A stretch of DNA of 64,000 bases, taken from NCBI GenBank assembly GCA_029624765.1, contig JARSSO010000059.1, positions 62,001-126,000 on the forward strand, written 5' to 3'. The notes below the pieces were generated by a model. It was not told the origin of the DNA and did no database searches. It was given only the letters and a program-made list of their open reading frames with translations. This stretch comes from Candidatus Contendibacter sp. Its GTDB lineage: Bacteria; Pseudomonadota; Gammaproteobacteria; Competibacterales; Competibacteraceae. How positions within the stretch are numbered: the stretch's first letter is position 1; every line of letters begins with the position of its first letter. Below, in pieces: positions 40,657-55,873 of the stretch. The position numbers were made by a program, and so were the translations under genes.

Positions 40657-40962
40657 TCCGGCTTCCTTGATCGGTGGGCGCTGGTTTCAGATTGAAACAG
40701 CGTGAACTCTCTCTGTTTCAAATTGAAATTACTCCCGCGATCAAAAAAGCAATTATCGCTGATAACCATTTCATAAATAAGGCTATCCGCGCCGGGTGCG
40801 ACTGTGGCATGGAAGATGCTTTTTATCGGTTAAGGTGTTTTATGGCGCCAAGTCCGCTTTGGAGGGATTTAAAACATCATTCCCAAGAACGGCGGATTGT
40901 GTAGATAAACCGAAGCGACATAATCACTGGTAATGTTTCTTATCCACACCCAGGAGGAAAAC

Positions 40963-41577
40963 ATGACAAAACCGAAGCTATACAACGAAAGTATGCGAGC
41001 CAAGCTCAAGACCGGTGATGTGGTCTTGTTTTCTGGTAAGGGAGGCGTCAGCGCCGGTATTAAGTGGGCAACGCTTAGTCGGTGGTCACACGTAGGAATG
41101 ATCGTCTTTCTGCCTGAATATGATTTTGTCACTGTATGGGAGTCCACTACACTGAGCTCCATTGTTGATCTTGACACAAAGGTACCTCGCAAAGGCGTCC
41201 AACTTGTCCCTCTAAGTTCGCGTATTGAAGGCTACGACGGAGAAATTGCAGTACGCCAATTGGATGGCGTTACGTTCGATAGCGACGATATAAAGAGACT
41301 GATGCAACTTCGACGCGAGTTGGCGGGTCGAGAATACGAACAGGACAAAATCGAGCTTATCAGAGCCGCCTATGACGGACCTTTAGGGAGGAATTCTGAA
41401 GACCTTACCAGCCTCTTTTGTAGTGAATTGGTCGCTGAGGCATATCAGCGGCTCGGACTTCTAAGCGAAGAGAAGCCGTCGAATGAATATACGCCGGCAG
41501 ACTTTTCCGAGAAAAAAGTGCTGAAGTTGCTTAAAGGCTCTCTTGGGAAGGAAATTTTTCTGAAAGCAGAAACATAA
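40963..41577 (+). CDS. YiiX/YebB-like permuted papain-fold cysteine peptidase
   Basis: A 204-residue protein starting at the ATG after CAGGAGGAAAAC. It shows the circularly permuted NlpC/P60-papain pattern: TGDVVLFSG near residue 17, then histidine H43 in RWSHVGMI, and the nucleophile C153 in LFCSELVAEAY. Relatives act on peptidoglycan peptides, lipids or proteins. There is no signal peptide, so it is probably cytoplasmic or exported by another route. Base composition is clearly more AT-rich than the flanking pyrF/DUF924 genes, suggesting horizontal acquisition together with the metalloprotease downstream. Confidence 0.75.
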   Translation: MTKPKLYNESMRAKLKTGDVVLFSGKGGVSAGIKWATLSRWSHVGMIVFLPEYDFVTVWESTTLSSIVDLDTKVPRKGVQLVPLSSRIEGYDGEIAVRQLDGVTFDSDDIKRLMQLRRELAGREYEQDKIELIRAAYDGPLGRNSEDLTSLFCSELVAEAYQRLGLLSEEKPSNEYTPADFSEKKVLKLLKGSLGKEIFLKAET

Positions 41578-41590
41578 CCCTGTGGTCCAC

Positions 41591-41620
41591 CGGGTGCTGC
41601 GCGATAAAGCCGCGCAGCGC
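41591..41620 (+). promoter_or_regulatory. intercistronic hairpin between the two protease genes
   Basis: A GC-rich stem, GCTGCGCG (41595-41602) with CGCGCAGC, sits in the 78-bp gap between the papain-like and the leishmanolysin-like genes. No U-run follows, so it may be an mRNA-stability or attenuation element rather than a full terminator. Confidence 0.4.
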
Positions 41621-41655
41621 CAGTGACCTTCACTCTAAACAAGTGAGGCATTACG

Positions 41656-43336: not shown

Positions 43337-46300
43337 ATGAACGTCACTCGACGACAATTTCTCAAGGTCACCGCCGCCGGGCTGGGCAGTTCCAGCCTGG
43401 CGATGCTGGGATTCTCGCCGCAGCCAGCGCTGGCGGAGATCCGTAATTTCAAACTGGCCCGCACCACCGAAACCCGCAACACCTGTCCCTACTGTTCGGT
43501 GAGTTGCGGCGTGTTGATCTACTCCCTCGGCGACAAGTCCAAAAACGCCAGGGCCGAGATCGTCCACATCGAGGGCGACCCGGACAATCCGGTCAATCGC
43601 GGCACCCTCTGCCCGAAAGGCGCTGGCTTGCTGGACATGATCCACAGCGCCAACCGGCTGAAGCATCCGGAAGTGCGCGAACCCGGCGCCAGCGAGTGGA
43701 AGCGCATCACTTGGGACGAAGCGCTCGACCGCATCGCCCGGCACATGAAGGCCGACCGGGACGCCAACTTCATCAAGACCAACTCGGACGGCGTCACGGT
43801 CAACCGCTGGAACACCACCGGCTTCCTGGCGAGTTCCGCCGCCGGCAACGAGGCGGGTTATCTGACGCACAAGGTCCTGCGCGGCCTCGGCGTCGTCACT
43901 CTCGACACCCAGGCGCGCATCTGACACGCCCCGACGGTGGCCAGTCTGGCTCCGACGTTCGGGCGTGGCGCGATGACCAACCATTGGGTGGACATCAAGA
44001 ACGCTGATTTAGTCCTGGTCATGGGCGGCAACGCCGCCGAGGCGCACCCCTGCGGGTTCAAGTGGGTGGTGGAAGCCAAGGCCAGCCGCAAGGCCAAACT
44101 CGTCGTCGTGGACCCGCGCTTCACGCGCTCCGCGGCGGTCTCCGATTTCTACGCGCCGATTCGCGCCGGCAGCGACATCGCCTTTCTGGGCGGGGTCATT
44201 CATTACCTGTTGGCCAACGACAAAATCCATCACGAGTACGTCAAGGCGTTCACCAACGCCGCCTTCCTGATCAACGACGGCTTCCAGTTCGAGGACGGCC
44301 TGTTCTCGGGCTACGACGCCGCCAAGCGCAAGTACGACACCGCCACCTGGCAATACCAGCTCGACGGCCAGGGCTTCGTCAAGATCGACGAGACCCTGCA
44401 AAATCCGAACTGCGTGTTCCAGATCATGAAGCGGCACTACGCCCGCTACACCCCGGAGGTGGTCAGCCAGGTCACCGGGACGCCGAAGGCCGACTTCCTC
44501 AATATCTGCGAACTGATCGCCGAGACCGCGGCCCCCAACCGGACCATGACCATCTGCTACGCGCTGGGCTGGACCCAGCACTCGGTCGGTTCGCAAAACA
44601 TCCGCACCATGGCCATGATCCAGTTGCTGCTGGGCAACATGGGGATGGCGGGCGGCGGCGTCAACGCGCTGCGCGGTCACGCCAACGTGCAGGGCATCAC
44701 CGACCAGTGCCTCTATTCCGAGGTGCTGCCGGGCTATCTGAGCGCGCCGGCGGACGCGGACAAGACCCGCGAGGAGTATCTGGCCAAGCGCACGCCCAAG
44801 CCGCTGCGGCCCAACCAGATGAACTTCCCGCAGAACTTCCCCAAGTGGCACACCAGCCTGATGAAGGCCTGGTACGGCAGCGCCGCCAAGGTGGAGAACG
44901 GCTTCTGCTACGACTGGCTGCCGAAGAAGGACGCCGCCTACGACGTGCTGGCCCTGTTCGAGCGGATGCACCAGGGCAAGATGAACGGCTTCGTCTGCCA
45001 GGGCTTCAACCCGCTGGCCTCGGTGTCGCACAAGGCCAAGGTGTCTGCCGGGCTGGCCAAGCTGAAATTCCTGGTGGTGATCGATCCGCTGGCCACCGAA
45101 ACCGCCGAGTTCTGGAAGGATTACGGCGAGTTCAATCCCGCCGATCCGGCCGCGATCCAGACCGAAGTGTTTCGGCTGCCCTCCACCTGCTTCGCCGAGC
45201 AGGACGGTTCCTTCACCAACTCGGGTCGGGTCATCCAGTGGCACTGGAAGGCGGCCGACGGTCCCGGCGAGGCGAGGAGCGATCTGGACATCGTCGGCGA
45301 CCTGTTCGCGCGCTTGCGGGCGCTGTACGCGAAGGACGGCGGGGCCTTCCCCGATCCCGTGCTCGGCCTGGCCTGGCCCTATCGGATTCCCCGGCAGCCC
45401 CATCCCGAGGAAGTGGCGATGGAGATCAACGGCAGGGCGCTGGCGGACGTGACCGACCCGAAGGACCCGACCAAGGTTCTGGCCAGGGCCGGCGAGCAGT
45501 TGGCCGGTTTCGCCCAACTGCGCGACGACGGCAGCACCGCGTCCGGTAATTGGATCTACTGCGGGATGTGGTCGCAGGTCGGCAATCTCACCGCCCGCCG
45601 CGATCCGGCCGATCTGACCGGTCTCGGCCAGACGCTGAACTGGGGTTTCGCCTGGCCGGCCAACCGTCGCATTCTCTACAACCGCGCCTCCTGCGATCTG
45701 GCGGGCAAGCCCTGGGATCCCAGCCGCGCGGTGATCAAGTGGGACGGCACGAAGTGGGGCGGCAACGACATTCCCGACATGCGGCCGGACGCCAGGCCGG
45801 AAGAGGGAGTGATGCCGTTCATCATGAACCCGGAAGGCGTGGCGCGGCTGTTCGCCCCCGAGCGGATGGTCGATGGCCCGCTGCCCGAGCACTACGAGCC
45901 GTTCGAAACCCCGTTGGACGGCAATCCGATGCACCCGAACAATCCCCAGGCAGTCAGCAATCCCGCCGCGCGGATTTATCCGGGCGATCTGGAGTCGTTC
46001 GCCAAGGCCAGGGACTTCCCGTATGTCGCCACCACGTACCGGCTGGTGGAGCATTTCCACTTCTGGACCAAACATTCGCTGCTGAACGCCATCACCCAGC
46101 CCCAGCAGTTCGTGGAGATCGGCGAGGAGTTGGCGCGGGAGAAGGGCATCGCCAACGGCGACCGGGTACGGGTGCGTTCCACCCGCGGCCAGATCGTCGC
46201 GGTCGCGGTGGTGACCAAGCGGTTGCGGACGCTGGAGGTGGACGGCCGGAAGATACACACCGTCGGCATGCCGATCCACTGGGGCTTCCGGGGCGTCACC

Positions 46301-47948: not shown

Positions 47949-48143
47949 CTGAGGGATAAAGATTCAATACTTGGAGGGTGTGGCGAAGGCGCTGTATCCT
48001 TGAGACTACCGCCAGACGAGCGTATCCAGGGCGGTATAAGGCAGTAGGGAAAGGTGGGCAGTGATAGGGCAAAGTTTCTGTGTAGCACTGTTATGGCCTA
48101 TTCTGCCTATTGCGATATTAGGCTCCTCTTTCAGGTTCAGGAA

Positions 48144-48358
48144 ATGGAATACGACCCGATTTACAATGATCCAGCAATCAGGCCTCTAATCGATGCTGCC
48201 GCATTGAAAGCAGAGAAGCTGCTTGAGCATGACCCTCGGCGCGGGCAGATGGGATTTTGCTACGTAGGTTGGGCCACGATAAAAAAATCTTGCTGGAAGA
48301 ACACGGCATTGACTGGAAGACCCCGTCAGAGATGAATCCAGGTGTCCTATTCGACTAG
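48144..48358 (+). pseudogene. small conserved-looking protein broken at an A7 run
   Basis: The frame from ATG 48144 (MEYDPIYNDPAIRPLID...) reads sensibly to GWATIKK at a run of seven A (48281-48287). The protein-like continuation, ILLEEHGIDWKTPSEM...LFD ending at 48358, is in another frame. One-base slippage in the homopolymer would restore an intact protein of about 70 residues. It is either a pseudogene or a sequencing/assembly error. Function unknown. Confidence 0.6.
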
Positions 48359-48384
48359 ATGCGGTCGGCGTCTTACCAAGCGAT

Positions 48385-48466
48385 AGCGCGTAGGGCAGGT
48401 AGAGCGAAGCGAAACCCGCCTAATTGGGTGCTGCGCCGGAGACCGCGCTATTGACGAGTGCTGATG
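48385..48466 (+). repeat. 82-bp direct repeat, left copy
   Basis: It starts AGCGCGTAGGGC and contains a GAAGCGAAACCCGCCTAATT stretch. The closely similar right copy is at 49041-49122. The inner part forms an imperfect palindrome (GGGC...GCCC-type arms), resembling a REP/MITE unit. The two copies flank the small toxin-antitoxin pair and attC site. Confidence 0.75.
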
Positions 48467-48528
48467 ACGACGAGGATAGCAAGGCCCCGGTAGCCAAACA
48501 TGGAAAATGTAGATAATCGGTGATAGAC

Positions 48529-48729
48529 ATGAGCATAGTGGAAACCTTAGAAAGACAAGTCGAGCAGCTTGATCCCAAGGAATTAGCAGAATTTCGAGAC
48601 TGGTTTCTTGAATTTGAAGCGGATGCTTGGGATCGCCAAATCGAGCAAGATGCCAAAGCTGGAAAATTAGATGCCTTGGCGCGTAAGGCACTGGAAGATC
48701 ACGCTGCGGGTCGGACTACGCTACTTTGA
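48529..48729 (+). CDS. small antitoxin-like protein
   Basis: A 66-residue acidic, helical protein (SIVETLERQVEQLDPKELAEF..., later WDRQIEQDAKAGKLDALARKALED). The motif DxxIxxDxxxGKLDxL is common in antitoxins paired with RelE/ParE-type toxins. Its stop overlaps the toxin start (TTGA), the classic type II toxin-antitoxin coupling. Confidence 0.75.
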   Translation: MSIVETLERQVEQLDPKELAEFRDWFLEFEADAWDRQIEQDAKAGKLDALARKALEDHAAGRTTLL

Positions 48730-48980
48730 ACCATCACGCTAATCCAGATTTCTGGACATGCTATCGAGCGTTGCCCCAGGAAGTTCAGGTTCTTGCTGAT
48801 AGAGCTTACCTGCTGCTCAAGCAGAATCCCCATCATCCTTCCCTGCGCTTCAAAAAGGTAGGATCGTACTGGTCAGCCAGAATAGGAGGACATCATCGTG
48901 CGCTTGCGGTGCAAGCTTCTGATGGTTTTATCTGGTTTTGGATTGGCACACATGCAGAATACGACAGACTTATCGCCTAA
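48726..48980 (+). CDS. RelE/ParE-like toxin
   Basis: An 84-residue RelE/ParE-fold protein starting with TTG overlapping the antitoxin stop. Features are FWTCYRALPQEVQVLADRAY, NPHHPSLRFKKVG, WSARIGGHHRALA and FIWFWIGTHAEYD. The basic RFKK and the C-terminal HAEYD match this toxin class, which cleaves mRNA on ribosomes or poisons gyrase. Its TAA stop lies inside the R'' box of an attC site, as is usual for integron cassettes. Confidence 0.8.
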   Translation: MNHHANPDFWTCYRALPQEVQVLADRAYLLLKQNPHHPSLRFKKVGSYWSARIGGHHRALAVQASDGFIWFWIGTHAEYDRLIA

Positions 48981-49033
48981 CTGTGGCTTGCACCTGACCC
49001 CGCTATGCGGGGCAGGTGAAGCGGGTCGTTCGG
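48974..49033 (+). repeat. attC (59-base-element) recombination site
   Basis: The 60-bp structure is GCCTAAC (48974-48980), a 22-base left arm (48981-49002), a 3-base loop TAT, a 21-base right arm (49006-49026) and GTTCGGC (49027-49033). The arms pair as CACCTG-A-CCCCGC with GCGGGG-CAGGTG, leaving one extrahelical base. The 7+22+3+21+7 layout equals that of the aadA1 attC. R' differs from GTTRRRY at one base. No integrase gene is in the window. Confidence 0.7.
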
Positions 49034-49040
49034 CTTCTAC

Positions 49041-49122
49041 AGCGCGTAGGGCGAGTAGAGCGAAGCGAAACCCGCCTAATTGGCTTCTGCACCGGAGACC
49101 ACGCCATTAACTTGTGCTGGTG
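49041..49122 (+). repeat. 82-bp direct repeat, right copy
   Basis: It matches 48385-48466 over its whole length with scattered differences. It begins 8 bp after the attC site and ends before the DUF4160-like relic. Confidence 0.75.
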
Positions 49123-49173
49123 TTTGAACAGACAGCAAGACGCGGCCCTGACTACTATCGATATAGCATACAT

Positions 49174-49411
49174 ATGCCAACAGTTCTGAGAATTGGAAAT
49201 TTTCGCTTCTACTTCTACTCAGATGGAGGAAATGAACCTCCTCACATTCATGTACGCTGTTCTAGCGGTGAATGTAAGTTCTGGCTTGTCCCTAATAGCG
49301 TTAGCGCATAATCGTGGTGTACCTCCCCATGATTTAAGAGAAATTGAGAAACTCGTATTTGAAAATTGGCAAACCTTGATTGATAAATACCATGAATACC
49401 ACAATCGTTGA
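49174..49411 (+). pseudogene. DUF4160-family gene with a frameshift
   Basis: The frame from ATG 49174 reads MPTVLRIGNFRFYFYSDGG, EPPHIHVRC and KFWLVPNSV, then hits TAA at 49309-49311. The rest of the family pattern (LAHNRGVPPHDLREIEKLV and IDKYHEYHNR) continues in the +1 frame to 49411. A single missing base near 49300 explains it. DUF4160 proteins typically pair with DUF2442 proteins, as here. Confidence 0.75.
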
Positions 49412-49664
49412 AATAGAGCCTATAGCTATTAGAGCTTGGGCAGAGAAGCGGATGATTCATCTTGAATTAACTGATGGACGGATAGTGGGCTTCCCTGCTG
49501 ATCGCTTTCAGATTCTTAGCCAAGCCTCTGAAAATCAGCTTAAAGAGGTTCAAGTAGAGCTAAGTGGATCTGCACTCAGATGGGACGAGCTTGACGAAGA
49601 CTTGACCGTAGCTGGTGTAGTCGCTGGAAGATTTCAACTCCCATTGCCTAGACAAGCAGCCTAA
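49392..49664 (+). CDS. DUF2442-family protein
   Basis: A 90-residue protein (MNTTIVEIEPIAIRAWAEKR..., LELTDGRIVGFPADRF, and a C-terminal LRWDELDEDLTVAGVVAG) with the DUF2442 pattern of small putative antitoxins or DNA-binding partners of DUF4160. It overlaps the end of the frameshifted DUF4160 gene. Its TAA stop sits inside a GCCTAAC box. Confidence 0.82.
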   Translation: MNTTIVEIEPIAIRAWAEKRMIHLELTDGRIVGFPADRFQILSQASENQLKEVQVELSGSALRWDELDEDLTVAGVVAGRFQLPLPRQAA

Positions 49665-49675
49665 CTGGATGAGTT
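49659..49675 (+). repeat. possible truncated attC (R'' box only)
   Basis: GCCTAAC at 49659-49665 contains the DUF2442 stop codon exactly as at the complete attC upstream, but no paired arms follow. It reads TGGATGAGTTTTAAC instead. It may be a deleted attC site. A chance match of seven bases cannot be excluded. Confidence 0.35.
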
Positions 49676-49697
49676 TTAACGATCAATCTTTGAAACC

Positions 49698-49988
49698 ATG
49701 CGCGTCATCTCTAAGAGGCTAATAAGAGAATTCTGGGAACGTTGTCCAGAATCCAAGCCCGCTTTGGAAGAATAGTTTCGTAAAGCTAGCCAACTTGCAG
49801 CGGCGTCTTTTCCCGAGTTACGGCGAACATTCGGCTCAGCAGATTATGTCGATGGCTACACGCTTTTTGATGTAGGTGGAAACAAATATCGGGTCGCAAC
49901 TGTTATCCACTATGACAAGCAGCGTCTCTATGTCCGGCAGGTCATGACCCACTCGGAATACGATAGAAATGACTGGAGAAGAAAATGA
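49698..49988 (+). pseudogene. HigB-family toxin gene with an internal amber stop
   Basis: The frame from ATG 49698 reads MRVISKRLIREFWERCP..., breaks at TAG (49773-49775), and continues in the same frame with ADYVDGYTLFDVGGNKYRVA and VRQVMTHSEYDRNDWRRK, the HigB mRNA-interferase pattern, to TGA at 49986-49988. One base change would restore it. The stop overlaps the downstream gene's ATG. It is probably an inactivated toxin. Confidence 0.75.
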
Positions 49989-50224
49989 ATGTAGCACTTA
50001 ATATTGAGAAGCTTATTCCTGCTTGGCAAGCACTTAGATCAATTGCCCCACTGTCGCACATCGAGTCGGAAAGCGATTACGAACAGGCTACGAATTTGCT
50101 AAATAGCCTGCTCGATATTGTCCTTGACGATACCAGTCATCCCCTCTATTCGCTTGTTTGCGTAGTTGGCGATCTGATTGAAGCGTATGAAATTAATCAG
50201 GAGCCATTTGTAGCATTCTTGTAA
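49985..50224 (+). CDS. truncated HigA-like antitoxin
   Basis: A 79-residue protein matching the N-terminal part of HigA-type antitoxins (ALRSIAPLSHIESESDYEQA, DDTSHPLYSLVCVVGDLIEAYE) but ending before the helix-turn-helix that normally follows. Overlap with the broken higB (ATGA) supports the original toxin-antitoxin operon. It may be a decaying remnant. Confidence 0.65.
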   Translation: MNVALNIEKLIPAWQALRSIAPLSHIESESDYEQATNLLNSLLDIVLDDTSHPLYSLVCVVGDLIEAYEINQEPFVAFL

Positions 50225-50268
50225 ACAGGGAATTTGGCCAAGTTCAATTTGAGAGGAAACCACATACG

Positions 50269-55776: not shown

Positions 55777-55873
55777 GGAAGGGCGGCGTCATCCGGTGAG
55801 GCGGCCGGACTTCAAATCCGGTGGGGGCCGTCAGGCGGTCCTTGGTGGGTTCGACTCCCACGTCCTTCCGCCA
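55777..55873 (+). tRNA. selC: tRNA-Sec, anticodon TCA
   Basis: A 97-base tRNA of the long selenocysteine type: 8-bp acceptor (GGAAGGGC with GTCCTTCC, one G-T pair), D-arm, anticodon arm CCGGACTTCAAATCCGG with anticodon TCA, long variable arm GGGGGCCGTCAGGCGGTCCTT, T-arm GGTGGGTTCGACTCCCAC, and encoded GCCA 3' end. It aligns throughout with E. coli selC. It reads UGA. No integrase follows, although selC is often an integration site. Confidence 0.97.

What the first reader, a model, noticed from the sequence alone, without database searches (positions are those of the whole stretch)
48974..49675. attC site and a second R''-like box in a string of small toxin-antitoxin cassettes: possible integron-cassette (CALIN) remnant
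Seen: the 60-bp element at 48974-49033 has the exact box-arm-loop layout of a classic attC, with one extrahelical base and the upstream gene's stop inside R''. The next module (DUF4160/DUF2442) also ends with its stop inside GCCTAAC at 49659. Known: chromosomal integron arrays are rich in toxin-antitoxin cassettes. Inference: this stretch between fdnI and fdhE was built from gene cassettes, with no integrase visible here.
Basis: partly seen in the sequence, partly recalled or inferred. Interest (0 to 1): 0.62.

Follow-up and report, generated by a model that had tools for sequence, protein, structure and literature searches.

The report
Stranded integron cassettes with toxin-antitoxin genes
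Between two formate-dehydrogenase genes, this wastewater bacterium (Candidatus Contendobacter) carries a small, decaying set of integron gene cassettes encoding toxin-antitoxin pairs, while its working-looking integron integrase lies elsewhere in the genome; it is a real but ordinary case of a known phenomenon.

Summary
The element at 48975-49034 is a genuine attC: a covariance model built only from attC sites of this genome's own integron scores it 42.5 bits (E 2e-9), and 32.6 bits when the most similar training site is left out, against 15 bits for the next unrelated hit in the window. The genome holds an intact integron integrase on another contig, with an array using the same attC type. 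The second box (GCCTAAC, 49659-49665) is only a remnant, but in two related genomes the same DUF4160/DUF2442 pair is a normal cassette whose full attC starts at exactly that box. In two other Contendobacter genomes the fdnI-fdhE interval holds different cassettes with their own attC sites, including a HicBA pair homologous to one in this genome's intI-linked array; in two more distant Competibacteraceae fdnI is followed almost directly by fdhE. Best reading: toxin-antitoxin cassettes settled outside the integron, most likely by IntI acting in trans, now degrading. Insertion mechanism and residual activity are inferred. By the default two-site rule the interval itself is a single attC plus remnants, so CALIN applies only loosely. 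New member of a known kind.

The parts
48115..50260 (+). variable interval between conserved fdnI and fdhE flanks that differs from the two nearest Contendobacter genomes (approximate edges)
   Evidence: Alignments to L019 and L020: conserved up to ATA|TT at about 48114 and again from about 50266
48143..48360 (+). degraded small ORF, reading frame broken
   Evidence: Sequence and ORF list: frame is interrupted and continues in another frame to a stop near 48359
48385..48420 (+). REP-like palindrome, copy 1 (GTAG followed by a hairpin)
   Evidence: 36-base unit shared with 49041 and with the same locus in L019 and L020; only two copies in own genome
48418..48466 (+). GCCTAAT box and attC left-half-like remnant
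   Evidence: 87% identical to 49041-49122 copy, resembles the left half of attC; no fold (z +0.3) and no full covariance hit
48529..48729 (+). putative antitoxin ORF, 66-69 aa, overlapping the toxin start
   Evidence: ORF and position only; no Pfam, NCBIfam or PADLOC hit
48726..48980 (+). ParE-like toxin, 84 aa, stop inside R''
   Evidence: PF24732 ParE_like 8e-6, above cut-off; 3' end plus R'' recurs before a full attC in G006:C2
48975..49034 (+). complete attC site (R'' 48975-48981, R' 49028-49034)
   Evidence: Covariance 42.5 bits and 32.6 bits leave-one-out; fold z -4.6; near-identical sites in own C17 array and beside intI in G007
49041..49076 (+). REP-like palindrome, copy 2
49074..49122 (+). 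GCCTAAT box and attC left-half-like remnant; same remnant precedes the homologous cassette in G005:C198
   Evidence: Alignment to G005:C198; no fold
49174..49411 (+). DUF4160 gene, broken by a frameshift near 49300
   Evidence: PF13711 5e-10 on the first part; homologue in G005:C198 differs by an indel at this place
49392..49664 (+). DUF2442 gene, stop inside GCCTAAC
   Evidence: PF10387 8e-14
49659..49680 (+). collapsed attC: R'' GCCTAAC, short spacer, R'-like GTTTTAAC; hairpin missing
   Evidence: Relatives G005:C198 and G013:C269 continue from the same GCCTAAC into a full attC; no hairpin here
49698..49988 (+). HigB toxin gene, interrupted by an in-frame TAG at 49773-49775
   Evidence: PF09907 1.4e-19 on the part after the stop; sequence
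49985..50224 (+). putative partner of HigB, 79 aa
   Evidence: ORF and position only; no family hit
40933..41577 (+). YiiX-like permuted papain-fold gene upstream of the second attC
   Evidence: PF05708 2e-6
41571..41641 (+). second attC, 7.4 kb away on the other side of the fdn operon; R' degenerate
   Evidence: 42.7 bits, E 1.8e-9; 43.4 bits in model R2

Best explanation
The fdnI-fdhE interval holds integron gene cassettes that settled outside an integron and are now decaying. Toxin-antitoxin cassettes were most likely excised from integron arrays and inserted here by an integron integrase acting in trans on the folded bottom strand of attC; the genome's own IntI (contig C17) or a close relative is the likely enzyme. 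Afterwards the sites degraded: one attC (48975-49034) is complete, one (49659-49680) has lost its hairpin, and left-half remnants lie near 48418 and 49074. Self-contained toxin-antitoxin pairs would favour retention far from the integron promoter. Shown here: attC identity, intact IntI in the genome, the same modules as full cassettes in relatives, and content that differs between species. Inferred: that IntI made the insertions, that the surviving attC is still active, and that addiction explains retention.
For: attC by covariance model, leave-one-out model and fold. IntI on C17: TIGR02249 496 bits, 2a3v E 6e-96. Same attC type in the C17 array and beside intI in G007:C15. DUF4160/DUF2442 is a cassette with full attC in G005 and G013; ParE-like 3' end before a full attC in G006. 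HicBA homologues in the own C17 array and in the L019 fdnI-fdhE locus. L019 and L020 carry attC sites in this interval; L024 and L025 have fdnI followed closely by fdhE. Left edge of the variable interval is A|TTAGGC.
Against: No clean empty site and no precise G|TT boundary pair was found: the left edge has A instead of G, and the right edge does not resume the sequence seen in relatives. R' of the window attC is GTTCGGC, off the GTTRRRY consensus at one base. REP-like repeats at the module borders leave room for ordinary homologous recombination.
Confidence: 0.8

Rival explanations
1. The interval is the stump of a former complete integron that stood beside fdnI and lost its intI, rather than a place where single cassettes were inserted.
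For: CALINs have been proposed to be degraded integrons (PMC9024848). Several neighbouring modules in all three Contendobacter genomes are cassette-like.
Against: No intI match on this contig above chance level, intI lies on another contig in G000, and no attI was identified here. fdnI and fdhE are adjacent in L024 and L025, so the content is an addition within Contendobacter.
Confidence: 0.12
2. The modules arrived and were shuffled by homologous or illegitimate recombination through repeats (REP-like palindromes, attC remnants), carrying attC sites along as passengers.
For: The 48385 and 49041 repeats flank the ParE-like module; modules break at GCCTAAC boxes shared between species.
Against: The modules are discrete cassettes with attC in several relatives, which repeat-mediated recombination alone does not explain.
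Confidence: 0.25
3. The hairpin is only a transcription terminator or a REP-type palindrome that resembles attC by chance.
For: GC-rich hairpins just after stop codons are common, and a REP-like repeat begins 6 bases downstream.
Against: Strand-specific covariance score 42.5 against 12 bits, leave-one-out detection, near-identical sites in intI-linked arrays.
Confidence: 0.02

Closest known systems
Integron gene cassette with attC (59-base element)
   Same: Short ORF pair ending inside R'', imperfect inverted-repeat attC with extrahelical bases, same attC type as the genome's own integron array
   Different: Lies outside an integron; R' is GTTCGGC; neighbouring sites are degraded
CALIN at a conserved chromosomal locus, as in Xanthomonas (PMC12444791)
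   Same: Cassettes at the same locus in several species, away from intI
   Different: Only one complete attC within the window's interval; IntegronFinder 2 asks for two (PMC9024848)
Cassette insertion at non-classical attG sites (Loot et al. 2024, cited in PMC12901181 and PMC11023631; not read in full)
   Same: Would place cassettes at chromosomal sites without attI
   Different: No attG site was demonstrated here; only an A|TTAGGC left edge is suggestive
Toxin-antitoxin cassettes of sedentary chromosomal integrons such as the Vibrio cholerae superintegron (PMC11023631)
   Same: Several toxin-antitoxin families carried as cassettes
   Different: Small, scattered and partly broken here, and not beside intI

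Membership tests
attC site | R'' and R' boxes around an imperfect inverted repeat with extrahelical bases, strand-specific | tested here: met
   the R' box departs from GTTRRRY at one base, as the GTT is kept
attC site | recombined by IntI through the folded bottom strand | not testable with these tools
   Needs an in vivo recombination assay
Integron gene cassette | gene or gene pair directly followed by attC, found as a unit in different contexts | tested here: met
   DUF4160/DUF2442 with full attC in G005 and G013, ParE-like 3' end with attC in G006
Integron gene cassette | precise boundary at G|TT on both sides | tested here: inconclusive
   3' boundary at 49028 fits; 5' boundary of the ParE-like module not found; left edge of the interval is A|TTAGGC
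CALIN | attC sites without a neighbouring intI | tested here: met
   No integron integrase on the window's contig; intI on C17
[quoted passage not shown]
   One complete attC in the interval; the next is 7.4 kb away; rule from PMC9024848
Complete integron | intI and attI adjacent to the array | tested here: not met
Type II toxin-antitoxin system | toxin gene of a known family with an adjacent antitoxin gene | tested here: inconclusive
   ParE_like, HigB and DUF4160/DUF2442 families found; antitoxins by position only; activity not tested

The most novel reading that the evidence does not exclude
The fdnI-fdhE interval is a preferred, still active docking site outside the integron for toxin-antitoxin cassettes in Contendobacter, exchanging cassettes with intI-linked arrays of the same species pool, possibly helped by REP-like palindromes that abut R'' boxes.
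Probability: 0.12. Interest if true: 0.5.

Novelty: new member of a known kind. Interest (0 to 1): 0.33.

Why it matters
It documents cassettes settled at a conserved locus away from intI in an uncultured wastewater lineage, with three species showing different content and different stages of attC decay. That is a usable natural test case for how cassettes enter the chromosome outside integrons and how toxin-antitoxin cassettes persist there.

Tried and rejected
Rfam gave nothing at the site (only SECIS and tRNA-Sec in the window). The whole-genome covariance search scored only 150 of 3381 candidates and missed the window's own 48975 site, so its attC count is a lower bound. Terminator-only reading rejected. 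The repeat at 48385 and 49041 was considered as a cassette boundary, but its 36-base core is a GTAG-type palindrome that ends at CCCGCC in L019 and L020 too, so it is treated as REP-like. The upstream flank of the fdn operon could not be compared: similarity to the two nearest genomes begins only at about 43123. The toxin protein against plasmids found only distant cyanobacterial hits; PADLOC gave nothing. Papers holding both Competibacter and integron were four and off the subject by title and abstract.

Full report
The window is G000:C59:62001-126000 of a 4.29-Mb genome in 63 contigs. Its FdnI is 97-98% identical to that of two records titled Candidatus Contendobacter (L019, L020).

Observation. 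The attC at 48975-49034 is real. A covariance model built from seven attC sites of this genome's own C17 array scores it 42.5 bits, E 2.1e-9, and scores a second site at 41571-41641 42.7 bits; the next hit in the window has 15.1 bits. One training site (C17:5618) resembles the window site, so I rebuilt the model without it: 32.6 bits, E 1.3e-6, next 15.3. In 868 kb of fdnI flanks from 78 other loci only one Uliginosibacterium locus exceeds 18.8 bits, with two adjacent hits. The bottom strand folds at -18.8 kcal/mol, z -4.6. The second box at 49659-49665 has neither hairpin nor covariance hit. E-values from these models are rough; the gap in bits is the firmer argument.

Integrase. None lies near the window's site, but contig C17 encodes an IntI of 330 aa (TIGR02249 496 bits; E 6e-96 to 2a3v, the Vibrio integron integrase structure) with a run of attC sites leading away from it. 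The window's attC type occurs in that array (C17:5618 complete, C17:6066 truncated) and 0.6 kb from intI in another Contendobacter genome (G007:C15:3317, intI from 4001). Further attC hits lie on C9, C28, C34, C50 and C54.

Cassette identity. The DUF4160/DUF2442 module aligns with G005:C198 up to the last base of GCCTAAC and no further; beyond it the relative runs into a full attC, and G013:C269 shows the same arrangement with an attC on each side. The window keeps R'' and has lost the hairpin. The end of the ParE-like toxin gene with its R'' recurs in G006:C2 in front of a full attC. A HicBA pair (HicA by PF07927; HicB by position) that is a cassette in the own C17 array has a homologue in the fdnI-fdhE locus of L019.

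Locus history. In L024 and L025, both titled Competibacteraceae, fdnI is followed by fdhE within about 100 bases. In the window, L019 and L020 the interval is filled with different modules, and L019 and L020 carry attC hits there (25.9, 18.9 and 19.3 bits; the two weaker ones are homologous to each other and have both boxes). The variable part begins in the window at A|TTAGGC, which is compatible with an IntI crossover but is not proof. Damage is common: the first ORF and DUF4160 are frameshifted and HigB has an in-frame TAG; sequencing or assembly error cannot be excluded for a MAG. The ParE-like pair beside the complete attC is intact.

Interpretation. These are integron cassettes outside an integron, in decay. 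Conserved-locus cassette clusters away from intI are known in Xanthomonas (PMC12444791), and cassette insertion at non-classical attG sites has been reported (Loot et al. 2024, cited in PMC12901181; I did not read that paper). With a single complete attC the interval does not meet the two-site rule for a CALIN, so I use that word only loosely. IntI acting in trans is the best mechanism; repeat-mediated recombination probably helped to rearrange the modules. Toxin-antitoxin function is inferred from family and gene order.

Noticed in passing
window 41571-41641 with ORF 40933-41577: A second attC (42.7 bits) behind a YiiX-like (peptidase C92) gene, on the other side of the fdn operon, with a degenerate R' box; an M8-like metalloprotease ORF follows.
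   Followed up: partly
window 48385-48420 and 49041-49076; also upstream of attC in L134, L132, L014: GTAG-type palindromes (REP-like) directly abut attC R'' boxes in several Contendobacter loci; in the own genome the 36-base core occurs only twice, both here, and one full-length Y1 transposase gene exists on C19.
   Followed up: partly
L135 1707-1743, L139 1646-1682, L014 from about 157: Three attC sites are interrupted at R' by sequence resembling the 5' end of an attC-targeting group IIC intron; Rfam group-II-D1D4-3 matches weakly, below gathering score, in two of them.
   Followed up: partly
G000:C9:11229-12964 and G000:C50:3-6649: Partial IntI matches near attC hits on two further contigs suggest additional, broken integrons in this genome.
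   Followed up: no
L061 9107-9204 and 9512-9603: Two attC-like hits about 3 kb beyond fdnI in Uliginosibacterium sp. 31-16.
   Followed up: no
window 43919-43977 and 55777-55869: Selenocysteine insertion element in the fdnG reading frame and tRNA-Sec downstream of selB, as expected for a selenoprotein formate dehydrogenase.
   Followed up: no
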